A stretch of 64,000 nucleotides of DNA from G963667425 sp963667425 [NCBI: bacterium] (GTDB lineage: Bacteria > UBP6 > UBA1177), in NCBI GenBank assembly GCA_963667425.1, contig OY763407.1:496001-560000 (forward strand), given 5' to 3'. Numbering within the stretch: position 1 is the stretch's first letter; every line of letters begins with the position of its first letter. The notes below the pieces were generated by a model that made no database searches, was not told the DNA's origin, and saw only the letters and a list, made by a program, of their open reading frames with translations. The position numbers were made by a program, and so were the translations under genes. Below, one piece after another: positions 23,673-46,096 of the stretch.

Positions 23673-24353
23673 TTATTTAGAAGTCCATGAACCTGATTCA
23701 ATAATAACACAATCACCGTTTTCTACCGGCAAGGATTCATTTGTTGCTGTGTTAAGTTCGACTTCTATAAGTTTAACATCTGATATTGTTCCCTTACTTG
23801 TTCCTTCTTCTCCAACACCTTCCGCTATGTTTATTGTTCCTGATTTCTGAAAATACATTTTTTTCCCGAAACCTGTGTCATCCTGAATATCTTCAAAAAT
23901 AACAATACACTGTAAACATGTTGCAAAGTTACTGTTAATATCTGATGCCAGATCATAAGTTCCAGCAATGCTGTTTCCTTTAGTTTTATCTTCCTTATAG
24001 TCAAAGAAATTGAGATCAATCTGATCTGCCGCTTCTCCACCAAGAGAAATGGATGAATCATAATAGTTGTTGTAGTAACTTCCCATTGTAAGGTTTGCAG
24101 TTGGAATAACTACACATTCGTTTTGAGAAATATCATTATCTAAAGGCTCTGAGTCATCTGAAATTTCATCTGCATCTTCAATTTCTTCTTCATCTGAAGC
24201 TTCATCAATATCAGGAATATCAGGTCTTTGATCATTATCGGAAACACTGACATCTGAATCTTTTGATTTTGAATCGTTGTTGTCATCATCACATGAAATC
24301 ATTGAAAAAATTACAAAACAAAACATCAATAAGAATAAAATAAGATTTTTCAT
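23673..24353 (-). CDS. Secreted lipoprotein, single-domain paralogue
   Basis: The product has 226 residues from the ATG at 24353, chosen because a GGGGAGGGG tract lies just upstream. The signal ends in a lipobox with Cys21 followed by Asp residues (CDDDN). Residues 22-75 are an acidic Asp/Glu/Ser linker. The folded part contains LGGEAADQIDLNFFDY, AGTYDLAS, a CLQC pair, and GEEGTSKG followed by SGSWTS. It is closely related to the first domain of the neighbouring larger lipoprotein. Function is unknown; it is probably anchored in the outer membrane and exposed or periplasmic. Confidence 0.75.
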   Translation of the reverse strand: MKNLILFLLMFCFVIFSMISCDDDNNDSKSKDSDVSVSDNDQRPDIPDIDEASDEEEIEDADEISDDSEPLDNDISQNECVVIPTANLTMGSYYNNYYDSSISLGGEAADQIDLNFFDYKEDKTKGNSIAGTYDLASDINSNFATCLQCIVIFEDIQDDTGFGKKMYFQKSGTINIAEGVGEEGTSKGTISDVKLIEVELNTATNESLPVENGDCVIIESGSWTSK

Positions 24354-24416
24354 AATACCCCTCCCCAAGGATAATAGTTAAAAATAATAGTTTTGATAAA
24401 GAACTATGTTACGAGG

Positions 24417-24444
24417 ATAATATAGAGGTAAAATGAAATGTCAA
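24417..24444 (-). promoter_or_regulatory. Sigma-70-like promoter for lipoprotein gene
   Basis: On the minus strand TTGACA (complement of 24439-24444) and TATTAT (complement of 24417-24422) are separated by 16 nt, about 64 bp before the ATG at 24353. The arrangement is identical to the znuA promoter. Confidence 0.5.
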
Positions 24445-24488
24445 AGGATAGTTAAATATTTTGGCTTTTTATAGAATTATATTTGATT

Positions 24489-25895
24489 TTATTTTGTTGT
24501 TGTAGCGGTAGTATCCCATGATTTAGATGCTATGTTAAAACATGCACCACCTGGGACAACTGCAGTTGTGAAGCTAGAGTCTATAACTTTAACTTCTTTA
24601 ACTGTAAGATTTGTAATAATTCCACTCGTAGTTCCAGATGAATATGGATCTCCTGAAGTTACTTCAAGTGAACCTGCTGTCTGAAAGAAAAGTCTGCCTG
24701 AATTTTCTGAACCATAATTTTCTCTTAAAAGAACACACTGATTGCATGTTTTGTAGTTATCGTTTACACCGGCTGAAGCAAGATCATATGTTCCGACAGG
24801 AGTAGCAGCATAAAATTCAACAGTTACGTAATCATCGTAAGTATCTTCCCCAAGTGCAGGAAGAACTCCAAGATATCCATTTTCTGAGTCATATGTTATG
24901 GTAATAGAATCAAGATCAGCTCCTGTTACATCCATACATGTAACGTTTGTATCGACACATGTATATGTTTTTACATTGTCGCATGTTGTCTTGCCTTCTG
25001 CATTTGTACTACAATCTTCATCTGCTGCACATTCGCCGCAAACATTTTTGTCTGTTACACAAATACCTGTTGTGCAGTCACTGTTTTCATTACATTCGAC
25101 ACATGTATTTGAAGATGAACATACATTTCTGCCATCTGTATTGGCGCTACAGTCTGTGCTTGTTAAACATTCAACGCAAACATTGATAGCTCCTGTTTTA
25201 TCACAAACGCCGCCGTCACAGTCATCATTTGTTTCACACTGGTCAGAAGTCCATGAACCTGATTCAATAATAATACATTTTCCGCCTTCAACAGGGGTAG
25301 ATTCAAAAGTTTCATTGTCCCAGTCAATGGTTACTTCAACAAGTTTTACAGATGTAATGGTTCCTTTGCTTGTTCCTTCTTCTCCAATTCCTGTCGTAAT
25401 TGTAAGAGAACCTGATTCCTGAAAATAGTATCTGTTTGCTTTTTCTGAATTCTCATCAACATCTTCAGAAGCAAGAACACACTGAGTACAGGTTGCATAA
25501 TTGTTGTTTACTGAAGAGGTAAGATCATAGGTTCCTGCAACGCTGTTTCCAGTTTCATTGTCATCATTGAAATCATAGAAAGAAATTCCAATCTGATCAT
25601 ATCCTTCTCCACCAAGAGCAATTTCAATGTTATAGTAGGAGTTTGAATAACCCTGCTCAAATGTGAGAACAGAAAAACCTGTACATTCGTCTGTAGGTGT
25701 ATCTGTGTCAGGAATTTCGTCTGTGTCAGGAATTTCGTCTGTGTCAGTGATTTCGTCTGTGTCAGTGATTTCGTCTGTGTCAGGTGTCTCTATGGAATCA
25801 CCATCTGAAGTGGTTGTTTTTCCACTATCATCATCACAGGAAATCATTAAGAATGCAGCAAATAAAACTGCAAGTAATAACGCAAAATTTTTCAT
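24489..25895 (-). CDS. Large modular lipoprotein with Cys-rich repeats
   Basis: The product has 468 residues. The lipobox Cys is at 20 (LMISC-DDD). A repeated acidic linker of TDEI/PDTDEI units spans about 38-65. Domain A (about 70-215) contains ALGGEGYDQIGISFYDF, AGTYDLTS, CTQC, GEEGTSKG and SGSWTSDQC. A middle section has Cys-rich repeats (CVECLTSTDC, CVECNENSDC, CGECAADEDC) of the type seen in deltaproteobacterial surface proteins. Domain C (about 320-465) repeats the domain A plan (VGTYDLASAG, CNQCVLL, a Gly/Ser segment, then KSWDT). Function is unknown. It is a paralogue of the lipoprotein 135 bp downstream. Confidence 0.75.
   Translation of the reverse strand: MKNFALLLAVLFAAFLMISCDDDSGKTTTSDGDSIETPDTDEITDTDEITDTDEIPDTDEIPDTDTPTDECTGFSVLTFEQGYSNSYYNIEIALGGEGYDQIGISFYDFNDDNETGNSVAGTYDLTSSVNNNYATCTQCVLASEDVDENSEKANRYYFQESGSLTITTGIGEEGTSKGTITSVKLVEVTIDWDNETFESTPVEGGKCIIIESGSWTSDQCETNDDCDGGVCDKTGAINVCVECLTSTDCSANTDGRNVCSSSNTCVECNENSDCTTGICVTDKNVCGECAADEDCSTNAEGKTTCDNVKTYTCVDTNVTCMDVTGADLDSITITYDSENGYLGVLPALGEDTYDDYVTVEFYAATPVGTYDLASAGVNDNYKTCNQCVLLRENYGSENSGRLFFQTAGSLEVTSGDPYSSGTTSGIITNLTVKEVKVIDSSFTTAVVPGGACFNIASKSWDTTATTTK
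25703..25783. repeat. 18-bp in-frame tandem repeat in lipoprotein gene
   Basis: There are four full copies plus a half copy of an 18-bp unit, CTGTGTCAGGAATTTCGT on the plus strand, with GTG replacing GGA in some copies. It encodes the minus-strand hexapeptide DTDEI(P/T). Copies 1-2 and 3-4 are pairwise identical, which suggests recent slippage and possible length variation of the lipoprotein stalk. Confidence 0.85.
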
Positions 25896-38101: not shown

Positions 38102-39055
38102 ATGAGAAAAATTATCTTTTTAACTATATTGATTTTAGGAACAATACTTACTGCTGCTGAAGGTGATTTTGTAACATTAGGCGAGAATGTTGAATCGTTT
38201 TTAAATAATGGATCAAAAAATATAGAAACTTCACACAGATCAGGACTTGATATAAATAAATCATCTTTTAAAAGCTACAGTGATGCATGGTCTGAATCTT
38301 ATATGAGCGAATACAGTGTCGCAGCGGATTTTTCGCTTGCAGAAAAACTTAAAGAGCTTTTCTTCAGTTCTAAAAGTGTTGAAAAATATGATTCTTTTAC
38401 AAATGAGAAAGGGGAAATCAGGTTTCAGAAGAAAGAAGTTCCTATGCCATCAGACCTGGTAATAAAATCGGGAACAAAAATAGAGATAGAAGATTACATC
38501 AAGCTTGCGGAGAAAAAACTTTATGAAACATTTGGCGAAGCTATTGAAGGATATGAATATTCCAATTACGCCATAGATGAAGTATCATGCGTATCATGTA
38601 AAGATAATTCAAAAATGATTTCCGGCATTTCAATAAGATTCAGACGTATATTTAAAGGGGGAATTGTTGATGAAAACACTTCCTATATAAGAATCGAATT
38701 TGATCCTGATAGCTCAGTAAGAAGATTAAATGTAAAATGGCCTGAGATAAAAGAACTTTCTGTAAAAAAATCTATCAGAAAAATAAATAATTCCATAGAC
38801 CCTGTCATGACGTACTTTTCAGAACTTAAAGAAATAAGAAAAGGAACGGAAATGCTCTCTGTTAAAAACATAGAAATAAACAGTGCGGCAAGATTCTGGA
38901 TAGCTTTCGAAAATAACGGAGAAACAGTTCTCTCTCCAGGATATTCTTTTATAGGAACAATACATCTTGAAGATGGAAGCATTGCATCTGCAAAAACAGA
39001 AGCATCTTTAATTGATGAATATTATCAGAATTACCTTAAATCTTTTTCAAAATAA
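38102..39055 (+). CDS. Secreted partner of caspase-like protein, FTP/PepSY-like
   Basis: The product has 317 residues from ATG 38102, with GGAGG 7 nt upstream; an upstream in-frame ATG is rejected. The signal peptide ends near LTAAEG. The middle (about 140-230) has a pattern of LAEKKLYETFGEAI..., ISGISIRFRRIFKGGIVD and VRRLNVKWPEIK. This recalls FTP/PepSY-type folds found in protease propeptides and inhibitors. The C-terminal part again shows strands with a WIAFENNGETVLSPGYSF stretch. I infer a chaperone or inhibitor of the upstream caspase-like protein, but recognition is weak and the family is otherwise unknown to me. Confidence 0.55.
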   Translation: MRKIIFLTILILGTILTAAEGDFVTLGENVESFLNNGSKNIETSHRSGLDINKSSFKSYSDAWSESYMSEYSVAADFSLAEKLKELFFSSKSVEKYDSFTNEKGEIRFQKKEVPMPSDLVIKSGTKIEIEDYIKLAEKKLYETFGEAIEGYEYSNYAIDEVSCVSCKDNSKMISGISIRFRRIFKGGIVDENTSYIRIEFDPDSSVRRLNVKWPEIKELSVKKSIRKINNSIDPVMTYFSELKEIRKGTEMLSVKNIEINSAARFWIAFENNGETVLSPGYSFIGTIHLEDGSIASAKTEASLIDEYYQNYLKSFSK

Positions 39056-42334: not shown

Positions 42335-43062
42335 AAAATAAAGTCATATTTTTAAGTCAAAAGTAAATTTTAAAGAAAAATTAAACGCAAAATAACAAAA
42401 GAGCAAAGGTAAAGTAAACTTTATATTACATTTATAAGAAAAAAAGTACGTCAGAAAAATATTTTAGTGTGTCAAAGAATAAAAAAAGTATGGAAGAGCA
42501 TTTTTGTAAAGTGAAAATAGAAAAAAAAGTACGTCTGGAAAAAATCTAAGTACGTCAGAAAAGAAAAAAAGTTTGTCAGAAGAAAAAAATATAAGGAAAT
42601 ATAAAATTAAGTTTACACTTTTTAACAAAAAAGTACGTCAGAAAAAATTCTGATAGTGAAAATTGATAGTCAGAGTACGTCTGAAGAATTCTTTGATGTT
42701 AAAATAGAAAGCTTATGTGCGTCATAAAACTTTTTTGATGTTAAAATAAATTCATGTCAGATGAATATTATAAAAAATATTGTTTTAGTGGCTCAACAAT
42801 GTGTTAAACAGAAAAATTTTCATTAATTATAAAATAAAAAATAGCAAACAAACCGGTTGGTATATAATAATAAAACATAAACCTGACTCACAAAGATAAA
42901 TTTAATGAACTATCTTAAAATATTGAGTTAAATTCAAAAAAATATTGAAATTTAAACATATCAGTAGTTAAATGCAGTTGTGCGAAGAAGAACTTAAAAC
43001 AGTTGAGCTCTATCCTGATGCAGGCTGGACTTTAGAAACAGTTTGGAAAGTAAATATTATTG
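42335..43062. other. Intergenic region with repeat lattice
   Basis: This 728-bp region has no long frame. From 42445 to about 42767 it holds the 21-bp-spaced repeats (separate entry). From 42768 to 42970 it is plain AT-rich sequence, and a short frame at 42972-43079 runs into the next gene. I see no terminator with a clear stem for the lipoprotein gene. Confidence 0.6.
42445..42767. repeat. AGTACGTCAGAAAA-type repeats on a 21-bp lattice
   Basis: About nine to ten degenerate copies of AGTACGTCAGAAAA start at 42445, 42466, 42487, 42528, 42549, 42570, 42632, 42674, 42716 and, weaker, about 42753. Until the last copy, intervals are 21, 21, 41, 21, 21, 62, 42 and 42, all near multiples of 21 bp, two helical turns. 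Between later copies a second unit, like GATGTTAAAATAGAAA, fills the odd lattice positions (42653, 42695, 42737). All three frames contain stops, so it does not code now. Iteron-like protein binding sites or a decayed tandem array are the main readings. Confidence 0.65.
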
Positions 43063-43079
43063 ATGGAAGAAAAGATTAA
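42972..43079 (+). CDS. Short frame, possible gene remnant
   Basis: A 35-residue frame (MQLCEEELKTVELYPDAGWT..., ending NIIDGRKD) runs into the start of the nucleotidyltransferase gene and overlaps it by 17 nt. It has no ribosome site. The AGWTLETVWKV segment looks like the tail of a secreted repeat protein, so it may be the remnant of a deleted gene or simply chance. It could also serve as a leader frame coupling translation to the next gene. Confidence 0.2.
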   Translation: MQLCEEELKTVELYPDAGWTLETVWKVNIIDGRKD

Positions 43080-43821
43080 GAAGCATTTATCTGATTTAGA
43101 GAAGGAAAAAGGAATTAAAATTCTTCTTGCATGTGAAACAGGTTCAAGAGCGTGGGGATTTCCTTCGCCTGATAGTGATTTTGATGTTAGGGTTATTTAT
43201 AAACATGAGAAAGACTGGTATTTAAGCTTGACCGAAGAAAAAGATACAATCGAATATTTCCTTGAAAATAACGATATTGATATAAGCGGCTGGGATCTTA
43301 GAAAAAGTCTGAGATTACTTTGGAAATCTAATCCGCCATTGCTGGAAAGAATCCAGTCACCAGTTATTTACAAAGCCGACAAAGATTTTCTTGCTGGAAT
43401 TAATTCAATCGCAAAGAAAACTTATTCAAGAATTGCGGCAATTCACCACTATTTGAGCATGGCAAAGAAAGCATTTGAAGAAGTTATGAATTCAGATGAA
43501 TATAAACTTAAAAAGTTTTTTTATGCACTTCGTGCTTCTACAGCCTGTTTATGGATTTTAGAAAAAGAGGGGATACCGCCGATTGAATTAAAAAAAATGC
43601 TGTTTGAACTGAATTTGCCGGAAAATTTGAAAGCAAGAATTAATGAGCTGATTAAGATAAAGTCAGCTATAAGCGAAAAATATTTACACAAAGGCGAGAA
43701 TGAATTGACTGAGTTCATGAAAAAATGCATTTTAAGAGCAGATATGGAATCTAAATGTTTGCCTTCGTCGAAGGGAGAAATTACGGAGCTAAATCAATTC
43801 TTCAGAAAGACTTTGGATTAA
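43063..43821 (+). CDS. RlaP-family nucleotidyltransferase (copy 1)
   Basis: The product has 252 residues from ATG 43063; the TTG one codon earlier has no better site. The N-terminus has the polymerase-beta nucleotidyltransferase signature: GSRAWGF (27-33), then DSDFD with Asp39 and Asp41 as metal ligands. The rest is helical with RIQSPVIY and a Lys-rich middle. It matches the RlaP/YcgL family linked to RNA repair in some bacteria, but a biochemical activity is not settled. It lies 3 nt before a second member of the same family; an RNA ligase gene is not seen nearby. Confidence 0.8.
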   Translation: MEEKIKKHLSDLEKEKGIKILLACETGSRAWGFPSPDSDFDVRVIYKHEKDWYLSLTEEKDTIEYFLENNDIDISGWDLRKSLRLLWKSNPPLLERIQSPVIYKADKDFLAGINSIAKKTYSRIAAIHHYLSMAKKAFEEVMNSDEYKLKKFFYALRASTACLWILEKEGIPPIELKKMLFELNLPENLKARINELIKIKSAISEKYLHKGENELTEFMKKCILRADMESKCLPSSKGEITELNQFFRKTLD

Positions 43822-43824
43822 TTA

Positions 43825-44922
43825 ATGATAATCGAAGATTTAAGAAAAAAAGGTTTAATTATTCTTGAGTGTATTAGCGGCAGTAAAGCTTATGGACTTG
43901 ATACACCGGCATCCGATACCGATATAAAAGGTGTTTTCATTTTGCCCAAAGAGGAGTTTTATGGATTAAATTATACTCCGCAGGTAAACAATGAAACAAA
44001 TGATGTTGTGTTTTATGAATTTGGAAGGTTTATGGAGCTGCTCTCATTAAACAATCCTAATATTCTGGAACTGCTCAATACTCCTGATGCGGCAATAATT
44101 TATAAGCATCCGTATCTGGCTGAAATTAAACCGGAACTGATTTTATCCAAGTTATGCTGCAATACTTTCGGAAAGTTCGCATTATCTCAAATCAAGAAAG
44201 CGAAAGGACTTAAAAAAAAGATTGTAAATCCTGTTGCAAAAGAACGAAAAAGTGTGTTGTCATTCTGCTTTGTGAGTTACGGGCAGGGTGCAGTTCCTCT
44301 TGAAAAATATTTGAAAATGAAAGGCTGGAAGCAGGAATATTGCGGATTGGTTAATATTCAGCACATGAAAGATGTTTATGGTTTGTATTATTCTGAAAAT
44401 TATGGATTCAGCGGAATTACAAAAGGAAAGGATTCAAATGATGTCTGTTTAAGTTCAATTCCTAAAGAAGCCGGACAAGAGGCGATAATGTATTTCAACA
44501 GGAATGGATATTCAATTTACTGCAGGAAATATCGTGAATACTGGGATTGGGTTGAGAAGCGAAACGATGAAAGATATGAAAACACTAAAAGTCATGGTAA
44601 AAATTATGATTCAAAAAATATGATGCATGTATTCAGACTTTTAGAAATGGCAATTGAAATAGGAAAAGAGAAAAAAGTCAATGTGAAAAGAGAAAACCGT
44701 GATTTTTTATTGGATATTAAAGCCGGAAAATTTGAATATGAGGAATTGCTGAAAATGGGAGAGGAAAAACAAGCTGAAATGGAACTGGCTTTTAAAAATT
44801 CAAGTTTACCGGATAAACCCGATTTGGCATTGATAAATGAGCTGACATATAGATTAAGAGATAAATTTTATAAAGAGAATGTAATCAGGGAAGATTTAAA
44901 GATTGACACTCTTCAGTTTTGA
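43825..44922 (+). CDS. RlaP-family nucleotidyltransferase (copy 2)
   Basis: The product has 365 residues. The nucleotidyltransferase motif is GSKAYGLDTPASDTDIKG with Gly19-Ser20 and Asp31/Asp33. Downstream are NNPNILELLN and a large C-terminal region rich in Lys, Tyr and Glu with a conserved-looking KNYDSKNMMHVFRLLEMA. It is homologous in its first 100 residues to the preceding gene but belongs to a different branch with a longer tail. Two dissimilar family members side by side suggest a heteromeric or two-step RNA (or nucleotide) modifying system. The stop lies 18 nt before a structured element. Confidence 0.8.
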   Translation: MIIEDLRKKGLIILECISGSKAYGLDTPASDTDIKGVFILPKEEFYGLNYTPQVNNETNDVVFYEFGRFMELLSLNNPNILELLNTPDAAIIYKHPYLAEIKPELILSKLCCNTFGKFALSQIKKAKGLKKKIVNPVAKERKSVLSFCFVSYGQGAVPLEKYLKMKGWKQEYCGLVNIQHMKDVYGLYYSENYGFSGITKGKDSNDVCLSSIPKEAGQEAIMYFNRNGYSIYCRKYREYWDWVEKRNDERYENTKSHGKNYDSKNMMHVFRLLEMAIEIGKEKKVNVKRENRDFLLDIKAGKFEYEELLKMGEEKQAEMELAFKNSSLPDKPDLALINELTYRLRDKFYKENVIREDLKIDTLQF

Positions 44923-44940
44923 TTTAATATTTTCATGCGT

Positions 44941-45021
44941 AAAGGCTGAGAATTGTCGGAGCCATGTTGCCTGCTTTTAGCGGAACTTATCCGGTTGGTG
45001 AGCGGCTGCCGGACACTCTTT
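44941..45021. ncRNA. Structured element B (conserved fold, unknown)
   Basis: This element pairs with the copy at 45621-45705. Both share GGCTGAGA, then GCC, GCCTGCTTTT and AACTTA. Stems in the plus orientation: P1 AAGGCTG (44942-44948) with CACTCTT (45014-45020, one mismatch and one G-U), P3 CTGC (44971-44974) with GCGG (44980-44983), and P4 TCCGG (44990-44994) with CCGGA (45009-45013). P4 directly abuts P1. The transcribed strand is unknown. It lies after an RlaP gene on one strand and after a small gene on the other. Confidence 0.5.
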
Positions 45022-45079
45022 ATGCTCTTTTTCGTTATCGCTCATTTCTTTATCAAAAGTTATAAACAGTGCACTTTTA

Positions 45080-45535
45080 TTACACATCCTCATTATTCTT
45101 CTTTCTCTTCTCATACACTTTCTCATACTTTTTAACATATTTTTTCCAGGCTTCAAGCTCCACAGGAGACATTATCATTTCAGGCACATAAAGCCAGTAA
45201 TATTTTTCAGGATTCTTAAAAATAAGCCTGGCATAACCGGTATCAGAATGCAAATCCTGAAAAGCATCGGTAAAATCTCCTTTCCACTCAAGAGCCGGCT
45301 TTTCCAGCTGATACCTGAACCATAATTTAGCCTGCTCAACCATTTCTGCAATAAGATCCATTATTTCAGCATCATCAAAATATGAAGGGTTGTTCTCAAA
45401 CGTTTCAACTATTTCAATTGAAAAAACATCACCATAAACGTCAGAAGGGTTCAATGTTTTTTCTCTCATACCTTTAAAAGCCTTAACAACTCTCTTTATA
45501 TCAATAATCAAATATTCTCTTTCACTCTTTCTCAT
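45080..45535 (-). CDS. Small hypothetical protein (paralogue 2)
   Basis: The product has 151 residues and is not recognised. It starts at an ATG 6 nt after an AAGGAA-like site. The sequence is mixed, without signal peptide or membrane segment, and ends in a Lys/Glu-rich tail. It shares a plan with the protein encoded at 45725-46096: ENNPSYFDDAEIMDL against ENPEILKDTEIIEAL, then a Trp-rich strand (YYWLYVPEMIMSPVELEAWKKY) against (HWWWWWHEEFMTEEEIKRFNKY). The two are therefore diverged tandem paralogues. Each is followed by a copy of the structured element. Confidence 0.6.
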   Translation of the reverse strand: MRKSEREYLIIDIKRVVKAFKGMREKTLNPSDVYGDVFSIEIVETFENNPSYFDDAEIMDLIAEMVEQAKLWFRYQLEKPALEWKGDFTDAFQDLHSDTGYARLIFKNPEKYYWLYVPEMIMSPVELEAWKKYVKKYEKVYEKRKKNNEDV

Positions 45536-45620
45536 TTTATTCCTTCTAAATGTGATTTTTTATGCTGTATTTTGAAATCATTTGATTTTTACCTCAAAAA
45601 GGTTAAATTAATTAACCACA

Positions 45621-45705
45621 GGGGCTGAGACATGCCGCGTGCCGGAGTGCCTGCTTTTTTAAAGCAGAAACTTAATTCAGGAGTTACGGATCCTGAACAG
45701 CCCCC
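45621..45705. ncRNA. Structured element A (conserved fold, unknown)
   Basis: This is the best-formed copy. In the plus orientation P1 GGGGCTG (45621-45627) pairs fully with CAGCCCC (45698-45704). P3 CTGCTTT (45651-45657) pairs with AAAGCAG (45661-45667). P4 TTCAGGA (45676-45682) pairs with TCCTGAA (45691-45697) and abuts P1. Relative to element B, P1 base pairs change G-C to A-T and all of P4 changes while pairing is kept. A GGTTAA/TTAACC inverted repeat (45601-45617) flanks it. It lies between the two paralogous small genes, 20 bp after the stop of one. Confidence 0.55.
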
Positions 45706-45724
45706 GTTTCTGTATTTTTTTGGT

Positions 45725-46096
45725 TTATCCTCTTGTTTCTAAATATTTGTTAAACCTTTTTATCTCTTCTTCTGTCATAAATTCTTCATGCCACCACCAC
45801 CACCAGTGGACTTTTTTATCAGGAAAAAGCTCCTGACCTGGTCCTAAAGAGCTTTTAAGTACGCTCCATCCCCATTTGCCATATTCGACAAGATATGTAA
45901 TCTGTTTGTCTCCAATCTTTTTAAGCTCCTTTAAAGCCTCTATTATTTCGGTATCTTTAAGAATCTCAGGGTTTTCATTAACCGCCTCGGAAAGGTCAAA
46001 CAGAGTGCATCCTAGTTCAAATGGAAACGTGCATTTTGTCACTTTTTCAAATATATAGGATGTTCTTGTTATTATTCTCAAGGTTGTTTCTTTCAT
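45725..46096 (-). CDS. Small hypothetical protein (paralogue 1)
   Basis: The product has 123 residues and no recognised family. Features are an acidic helix ENPEILKDTEIIEALKEL, a run of five Trp after His (HWWWWWHEEF), and a basic end. It is cytoplasmic by composition (no signal or membrane segment). It shares its core plan with the 151-residue protein encoded downstream. The gene plus the structured element that follows its stop looks like a unit duplicated once. A nucleic-acid or partner-binding role is possible but is only inference. Confidence 0.6.
   Translation of the reverse strand: MKETTLRIITRTSYIFEKVTKCTFPFELGCTLFDLSEAVNENPEILKDTEIIEALKELKKIGDKQITYLVEYGKWGWSVLKSSLGPGQELFPDKKVHWWWWWHEEFMTEEEIKRFNKYLETRG

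What the first reader, a model, noticed from the sequence alone, without database searches (positions are those of the whole stretch)
44941..45705. Two diverged copies of an unassigned structured element with covarying stems
The elements at 44941-45021 and 45621-45705 share GGCTGAGA, GCCTGCTTTT and AACTTA in fixed order. They fold alike: an outer stem closing the ends, a CTGC hairpin, and a hairpin abutting the outer stem. The paired arms differ but stay complementary: GGGGCTG/CAGCCCC against AAGGCTG/CACTCTT, and TTCAGGA/TCCTGAA against TCCGG/CCGGA. Compensatory change with conserved junctions is the mark of a functional RNA or single-strand DNA fold. I know no riboswitch class with this set.
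Basis: partly seen in the sequence, partly recalled or inferred. Interest (0 to 1): 0.8.

Follow-up and report, generated by a model that had tools for sequence, protein, structure and literature searches.

The report
New pseudoknotted small RNA gene family
The two look-alike stretches are very likely two genes of a small structured RNA not listed in the RNA family library searched here; related copies, most with their own start signal, sit in changeable genome regions of a few related bacteria, often beside toxin, restriction or phage-type genes, and what the RNA does is not yet known.

Summary
The two elements (here 44937-45033 and 45616-45721, + strand) look like two copies of a small-RNA gene. 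A model built from only these two found true relatives in 2 of 28 genomes of what appears to be the window's phylum, plus one false hit. A five-sequence model found 8 copies in 4 of the 28 and matched only those 4 among 386 related genomes.

92.2% of cells pair, 15 of 21 pairs change on both sides, and 0 of 500 shuffles match.

Seven of 8 first-in-array copies have a TTGACA-like/16 nt/TANNAT promoter upstream on the same strand; copy 2 does not. A T-rich tail follows P1. So an autonomous RNA of ~95-110 nt is most likely, rather than a riboswitch, attC site or repeat. No Rfam family matches.

Neighbours include RlaP nucleotidyltransferases, a YafQ toxin, YhcG and MmeI-type genes; none is constant. 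Function is inferred only: probably trans-acting.

The parts
44903..44930 (+). Promoter of copy 1: TTGACA (44903-44908), 16 nt, TAATAT (44925-44930); predicted +1 at 44937 (44938 with 17-nt spacing)
   Evidence: 10 of 12 consensus bases, reached by 10 of 500 shuffles; same hexamers and spacing upstream of the L135, L150 and L152 copies
44937..45033 (+). Small RNA gene, copy 1 (e1)
   Evidence: 87 bits with R1 and R3 (in both training sets); 19.2 bits, E 0.025, with model R2 built from copy 2 alone
44938..44948 (+). e1 P1 5' arm (pairs with 45014-45024)
   Evidence: 10 of 11 pairs standard; 3 pairs changed on both sides relative to copy 2
44955..44958 (+). e1 pseudoknot 5' strand GTCG (pairs with 45003-45006)
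   Evidence: helix 95% paired over 10 copies
44971..44983 (+). e1 P2 hairpin CTGCT/AGCGG
   Evidence: weakest helix in the family
44984..44989 (+). Conserved junction AACTTA
44990..45013 (+). e1 P3 hairpin TCCGG/CCGGA abutting P1
   Evidence: 100% of cells with letters paired over 10 copies
45014..45024 (+). e1 P1 3' arm
45026..45032 (+). T-rich tail TCTTTTT after P1 (terminator-like by reading; the terminator scan, limited to short-loop hairpins, lists none)
   Evidence: a T-rich tail follows P1 in all 10 copies
45080..45535 (-). ORF1, 151 aa orphan protein convergent with copy 1
   Evidence: gene-like codon use; paralogue of ORF2 (local score 75, z 8.2, 0 of 3000 shuffles)
45582..45609 (+). 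Weak promoter-like site of copy 2: TTGATT, 16 nt, TAAATT; predicted +1 at 45616
   Evidence: 8 of 12, reached by 230 of 500 shuffles, so not above chance on its own
45616..45721 (+). Small RNA gene, copy 2 (e2), with T-rich tail
   Evidence: 106 and 77 bits (in training sets)
45618..45627 (+). e2 P1 5' arm (pairs with 45698-45707, one A-C mismatch)
45634..45637 (+). e2 pseudoknot 5' strand GCCG (pairs with 45687-45690, 3 of 4 pairs)
45651..45667 (+). e2 P2 hairpin CTGCTTT/AAAGCAG
45669..45674 (+). Conserved junction AACTTA
45676..45697 (+). e2 P3 hairpin TTCAGGA/TCCTGAA abutting P1
45698..45707 (+). e2 P1 3' arm
45725..46096 (-). ORF2, 123 aa orphan protein convergent with copy 2
43060..43821 (+). 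RlaP-family nucleotidyltransferase 1; relatives (40% identity) lie beside the RNA in L134 and L151
43825..44922 (+). RlaP-family nucleotidyltransferase 2; its 3' end holds the -35 box of copy 1's promoter

Best explanation
The two elements are paralogous genes of a new family of autonomous small noncoding RNAs. Each is transcribed on the + strand (copy 1 from a sigma-70-type promoter whose predicted start is the first base of the element) and ends at a T-rich tract behind the closing stem. The ~95-110-nt RNA folds into a three-way junction: P1 joins the two ends, P3 directly abuts P1, P2 is variable, and the loop of P3 pairs with the strand leaving P1 to form a pseudoknot. Unpaired segments of the form GAGAAUU and ACUUAA change little. 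Supported by computation: family, fold, probable strand, promoter at 7 of 8 lead copies, tail, tandem arrays, location in changeable regions. Inferred: transcription itself; and action in trans, since no flanking gene is constant. A compact pseudoknot with near-constant unpaired segments points to protein binding, in the manner of the RNA antitoxins of type III and AbiF systems (about 35%), rather than to base-pairing with mRNAs (about 25%). The rest of the probability is other or unknown roles.
For: A model from the two window copies alone found L131 and L132 in 2 other genomes (34.3 and 30.3 bits), besides the false hit L133. A model of five copies found 8 in 4 of 28 genomes, 5 of them new, at 49-96 bits; among 386 relatives only the same 4 genomes matched at E 0.01. 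On 10 copies 92.2% of cells pair (slid controls 32-52%), 15 of 21 pairs change on both sides, 0 of 500 shuffles. RNAalifold on sequence-only alignments recovers P1, P2, P3 (5 copies) and P1 plus the pseudoknot, without P2 and P3 (10 copies). Seven of 8 lead copies have a 9-10 of 12 promoter with exactly 16-nt spacing (3-20 of 500 shuffles each). Copy 1's predicted +1 is at or next to the first base; + strand sites scoring 10 or more occur at 21 positions in 64 kb. T-rich tails follow P1 in all 10 copies. G-T pairs favour + in copy 1 (3 to 0), against 1 for the - strand in copy 2. Between unlike loci only the RNA block aligns (L134/L135 109 nt at 82%; L134 second copy/L150 114 nt at 87%).
Against: No transcript data. 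Copy 2's promoter is not above chance (230 of 500 shuffles), and it lacks part of the P3 loop and one pseudoknot pair. Folding energies of copy 1 and of both L131 copies are no lower than shuffles (z 0.02, 0.13, 0.05), although no pseudoknot is modelled there. A copy was found in only 4 of 28 genomes of the phylum. The lead copies are not all independent: L134, L149 and L151 share one locus, L150 and L152 another. A8 was fitted to the model, which flatters pair counts. The terminator scan lists no site at either copy (it looks only for short-loop hairpins). No protein partner or target is identified. A 9 of 12 promoter-like site also lies on the opposite strand at L150 and at the second L152 unit.
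Confidence: 0.8

Rival explanations
1. A cis element of the - strand: a structured 3' untranslated region or antisense partner of ORF1 and ORF2, duplicated with these paralogous genes.
For: ORF1 and ORF2 are paralogues and each has an element at its 3' side; copy 2 folds slightly better on the - strand (-33.1 against -29.9); 7 of 8 arrays are convergent with the next gene.
Against: No ORF1/ORF2 relative is found in the stretches held around the other copies (best E 0.064); the convergent genes differ (msrA, RlaP, a Mu-F gene, a small membrane-like protein); promoters stand on the + side in 7 of 8 lead copies; copy 1 folds poorly on the - strand (-9.1).
Confidence: 0.08
2. A folded single-strand DNA recombination site, as attC in integrons, with ORF1 and ORF2 as cassette genes.
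For: Orphan small genes each followed by an element, direct repeats 679 bp apart, a toxin-antitoxin pair and YhcG genes near other copies.
Against: The terminal RYYYAAC and GTTRRRY core motifs (recalled) are absent from the ends by reading the sequences; the outer stem varies while the junctions stay; no integrase was recognised by eye in the ORF lists around the copies, though only 10 flanking proteins were scanned; promoter and T-rich tail recur.
Confidence: 0.04
3. A selfish intergenic repeat (MITE- or REP-like) that happens to fold.
For: Units look exchanged as discrete RNA-length blocks: the second copy of L134 is 87% identical to L150 over 114 nt only; tandem copies; most sites lie between convergent genes.
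Against: Only 1-3 copies per genome among those found; changes on both sides in all four helices; a promoter at a similar place in 7 of 8 lead copies. Target-site duplications and terminal repeats were not searched for.
Confidence: 0.06
4. A riboswitch or other 5' leader element.
For: Three-way junction with near-constant unpaired junctions; GGGGCTGAGA recalls part of the TPP riboswitch (recalled).
Against: No Rfam match at the thresholds used other than chance-level ones; in 7 of 8 arrays the next gene is on the other strand.
Confidence: 0.02

Closest known systems
AbiF-associated RNA (RCd22; Rfam RF03085) and type III RNA antitoxins (ToxI, CptI)
   Same: Structured RNA in repeated or tandem units, found among phage-defence and toxin-antitoxin genes; ToxI is pseudoknotted (PMC12373285: abstract, outline and passages seen)
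   Different: Those sit upstream of one toxin gene and their repeats are 33-50 nt (same passages); here units are ~100 nt, single in 6 of 8 arrays, with no constant neighbour gene, and RF03085 is not among the matches
Integron attC sites
   Same: Folded element after small orphan genes
   Different: No terminal core motifs, different pattern of conservation, has a promoter and terminator-like tail
Y-RNA/tRNA-like partners of RNA-repair systems
   Same: RNA lies directly beside an RlaP nucleotidyltransferase gene in 3 of 8 arrays (e1, L134, L151); RlaP is described as predicted to restore lost nucleotides at RNA ends (PMC7824862: passages seen)
   Different: No Y-RNA or tRNA family matches the RNA; the orientation to RlaP differs each time; the other 5 arrays have no RlaP directly beside them
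Candidate structured RNAs from comparative-genomics surveys (e.g. PMC2864571, search listing only)
   Same: Covarying intergenic RNA of unknown role
   Different: Not matched by any Rfam 15 family; the survey papers were not opened, so motifs outside Rfam are not excluded

Membership tests
Any Rfam 15 RNA family | Covariance-model score at or above the gathering score | tested here: not met
   Window and six loci with copies: one tRNA each in the window and L134, nothing at the elements; permissive scans show only chance-level hits or none at E 0.5
Autonomous bacterial small RNA gene | Own promoter on the same strand | tested here: met
   7 of 8 lead copies by consensus match; copy 2 fails; not shown to be active
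Autonomous bacterial small RNA gene | Conserved secondary structure with compensatory changes | tested here: met
Autonomous bacterial small RNA gene | Discrete transcript | not testable with these tools
   No expression data
Integron attC site | RYYYAAC and GTTRRRY core motifs at the ends (recalled) | tested here: not met
   Read by eye from the sequences
Type III toxin-antitoxin / AbiF RNA | RNA repeats followed by their toxin gene | tested here: not met
   Flanking genes differ among 8 arrays; no constant downstream gene
Type III toxin-antitoxin / AbiF RNA | RNA binds and neutralises a protein toxin | not testable with these tools
   Needs binding and rescue assays
Riboswitch / 5' leader | Co-directional gene directly downstream | tested here: not met
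   Found in 1 of 8 arrays (L134, 73 nt before a 69-aa gene that precedes the YafQ-type gene)

The most novel reading that the evidence does not exclude
The RNA is the RNA half of an undescribed conflict system: a pseudoknotted RNA, able to form arrays, that controls or is handled by a protein made elsewhere (an RlaP-type nucleotidyltransferase or a nuclease toxin of the islands). Islands would gather around it because it protects or silences their toxic genes.
Probability: 0.12. Interest if true: 0.85.

Novelty: new variant of a known kind. Interest (0 to 1): 0.6.

Why it matters
It adds a pseudoknotted RNA family with strong covariation, absent from Rfam 15, in a phylum-level group that could not even be named here. 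Its position among toxin, restriction and RNA-repair-type genes makes a protein-binding role directly testable. It also shows that two diverged copies in one window can be enough to recover a family once the right relatives are reached.

Tried and rejected
Exact patterns of the window motifs found nothing in genome contigs or viral contigs, and patterns of the wider family nothing in viral contigs. The two-copy model found nothing in 297, 195, 50 and 124 genomes of four other phylum sets, nor in 41 loci, 37 of them viral ones with RlaP relatives; with so weak a model these say little.

Dropped matches: L133 (28.4 bits with R1) lies inside a 308-aa reading frame and is not found by R3. Four matches at E 0.17-0.37 (L141, L142, L143, L148) were set aside; L141, L142 and L148 were read and do not show the P3/ACTTAA core by eye, L143 was seen only as an alignment.

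A per-sequence helix search against shuffles was too permissive to discriminate: only copy 2 beat all 200, the other nine were reached by 27-143 of 200. ORF1 and ORF2 gave no Pfam, NCBIfam, PHROGs or PADLOC match above chance level and no relative in viral contigs or plasmids; ORF1 had no PDB sequence match of use (ORF2 not tried). An AlphaFold2 model of ORF1 (two-sequence alignment; mean pLDDT 68.6, pTM 0.66, all helical) had no PDB match at E <= 0.001. BLAST of copy 2 in phages and plasmids gave only short pieces at E 0.3 or worse. The printed-literature check searched four 10-12-letter strings of the consensus; 14 papers hold one, and the 8 listed look unrelated by title. This does not show absence from print.

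Full report
What was checked. The two elements are present as described. They are G+C-rich (53%) in a 31-37% G+C window. Alignment against dinucleotide shuffles, a leave-one-out covariance model and a test of pair retention all say that the two are related in sequence and fold beyond chance. Sequence similarity alone would not have stood out in a scan of the whole window. No third copy shows in the window: the next match of the two-copy model is 13 bits, E 0.58.

Surroundings. Copy 1 starts 14 nt after the stop of the second of two RlaP-family nucleotidyltransferase genes (43060-43821 and 43825-44922). Relatives of the second occur in 208 of 50,697 phage records and 37 viral loci. Two small - strand genes, ORF1 and ORF2, have normal codon use, no useful database match and are paralogues of each other (24% identity; z 8.2, 0 of 3000 shuffles). 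Each runs towards one RNA element. So the window shows two diverged units of 'RNA then convergent ORF', but no ORF1/ORF2 relative was found in the stretches held around the other copies.

Finding relatives. No whole genome is held for the window. One genome, G823, reached 46%. In the 28 genomes of G823's phylum the model built only from the two window copies matched L131, L132 and a false hit inside a gene, L133. L131 holds a second, tandem copy (19.3 bits; 10 nt behind the first by the bounds). A model of five copies, R3, then found 8 copies in 4 of 28 genomes at 49-119 bits: G884 two, G886 two, G889 one, G892 three. Five of the 8 were not in its training set. Four further matches at E 0.17-0.37 were set aside. 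Among 386 genomes related to G886 only the same four genomes matched at E 0.01, with the tool's stricter filters.

Fold. On the 10 copies (A8, fitted to the model) P1 has 94% of cells paired, P3 100%, P2 74%. A pseudoknot between the strand after P1 (GYYR, columns 19-22) and the P3 loop (columns 86-89) has 95%. Fifteen of 21 pairs change on both sides. None of 500 shuffles reaches the percentage paired, the pairs or cells changed on both sides, or the covariation score; 2 of 500 reach the number of further pair types. Sliding the partners drops pairing to 32-52%. Alignments made without structure give P1, P2, P3 on five copies and P1 plus the pseudoknot, but not P2 or P3, on ten; on that ten-copy alignment P3 columns are still 83% paired. 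One copy (L146, 1277-1380) carries GCTA/TAGC where others have GCTG/TGGC or GTCG/CGGC. Energies of single copies are mixed: z -3.1 for copy 2, -2.4 for L132, about 0 for copy 1 and both L131 copies. A permissive per-sequence helix search did not discriminate.

Strand and transcription signals. Upstream on the same strand, 7 of 8 first-in-array copies have a -35 of 5-6 of 6 bases, 16 nt, and a -10 of the form TANNAT, with the predicted start 0-11 nt before the modelled first base. Each is reached by 3-20 of 500 shuffles. Copy 2 has only 8 of 12, no better than chance. The second units of the two tandem arrays have no site better than 7 of 12 and are presumably co-transcribed. On the opposite strand the best sites of the 8 lead copies score 5-9. 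A T-rich tail follows P1 in every copy, although the terminator scan, limited to short-loop hairpins, lists no site at the window copies. Copy 1's three G-T pairs favour the + strand, copy 2's one A-C pair the - strand. Together these make a stand-alone RNA gene of about 95-110 nt the best reading; no transcript was observed.

Places of the other copies. Gene calls here rest on ORF lists, the 10 proteins scanned against Pfam and otherwise on reading. L134, L149 and L151 share one locus near msrA in three genomes, with the RNA pointing towards msrA in each. L134 and L151 also carry RlaP and YhcG there, on differing sides, and L134 a YafQ-type toxin gene; L149 has none of these. L150 and L152 share another locus, the RNA divergent from an MmeI-type restriction gene (Pfam for L150; L152 by likeness) and convergent with a 79-90-aa membrane-like protein that ends 2 nt from the RNA. 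In L135 the RNA lies downstream of a cytosine-methylase-like gene (by reading) and a 173-aa ORF, and overlaps by 15 nt the end of a Phage_Mu_F gene with a below-cutoff PBECR3 nuclease match; a PIN protein lies beyond. In 7 of 8 arrays the next gene is convergent within 129 nt (L135 overlapping); in L134 it is co-directional at 73 nt. Outside shared loci only the RNA block aligns, e.g. the second unit of L134 with L150 over 114 nt at 87%, so units seem to be exchanged or lost as RNA-length blocks, perhaps by recombination between tandem units (inference).

Mechanism. Supported: sequence family, fold, probable strand, promoter, tail, arrays, context. Inferred: transcription; action in trans, because no neighbouring gene is constant; protein binding, because the near-constant parts are short unpaired segments held in a pseudoknotted frame, as in RNA antitoxins (PMC12373285: abstract, outline and passages seen). 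RlaP is the one neighbour seen both in the window and in another lineage (two genomes of the msrA locus; RlaP1 about 40% identical). PMC7824862 (passages seen) describes RlaP as an NTase predicted to restore lost nucleotides at RNA ends. A link is possible, but the orientation to the RNA differs each time (co-directional, divergent, convergent).

Known families. No Rfam family matches, and the AbiF RNA RF03085 is not among the weak hits. attC, riboswitch and type III definitions each fail a tested feature (see membership tests).

Verdict. Very likely a real small-RNA family, new to Rfam 15, of unknown function; interest 0.6.

Noticed in passing
window 42440-42730: Five copies of GTACGTC(A/T)G and looser variants in an AT-rich gap upstream of the RlaP pair; one inverse copy of GTACGTC at 38809. 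Function unknown.
   Followed up: no
window 43060-44922: Two adjacent RlaP-family nucleotidyltransferase genes that match different PHROGs best (phrog_14344 and phrog_388); the second has relatives at 49-51% identity in six viral contigs.
   Followed up: partly
window 45080-45535 and 45725-46096: Paralogous orphan proteins without useful database matches; ORF2 has a WWWWW stretch near its end.
   Followed up: partly
window 45596-45617: Palindrome GGTTAAATTAATTAACC (45601-45617); read on the - strand it is followed by TTTTT, a terminator-like end for ORF2.
   Followed up: no
L150 6120-6359 and L152 1003-1275: Alike 79-90-aa membrane-like proteins convergent with the RNA, ending 2 nt from it in both genomes; the L150 one has no Pfam match.
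   Followed up: no
L151 2855-4022: YhcG-like gene appears split into three overlapping reading frames.
   Followed up: no
window 23673-25895: Asp-rich lipoprotein-like proteins, one with CVEC-type repeats, perhaps a lineage trait.
   Followed up: no
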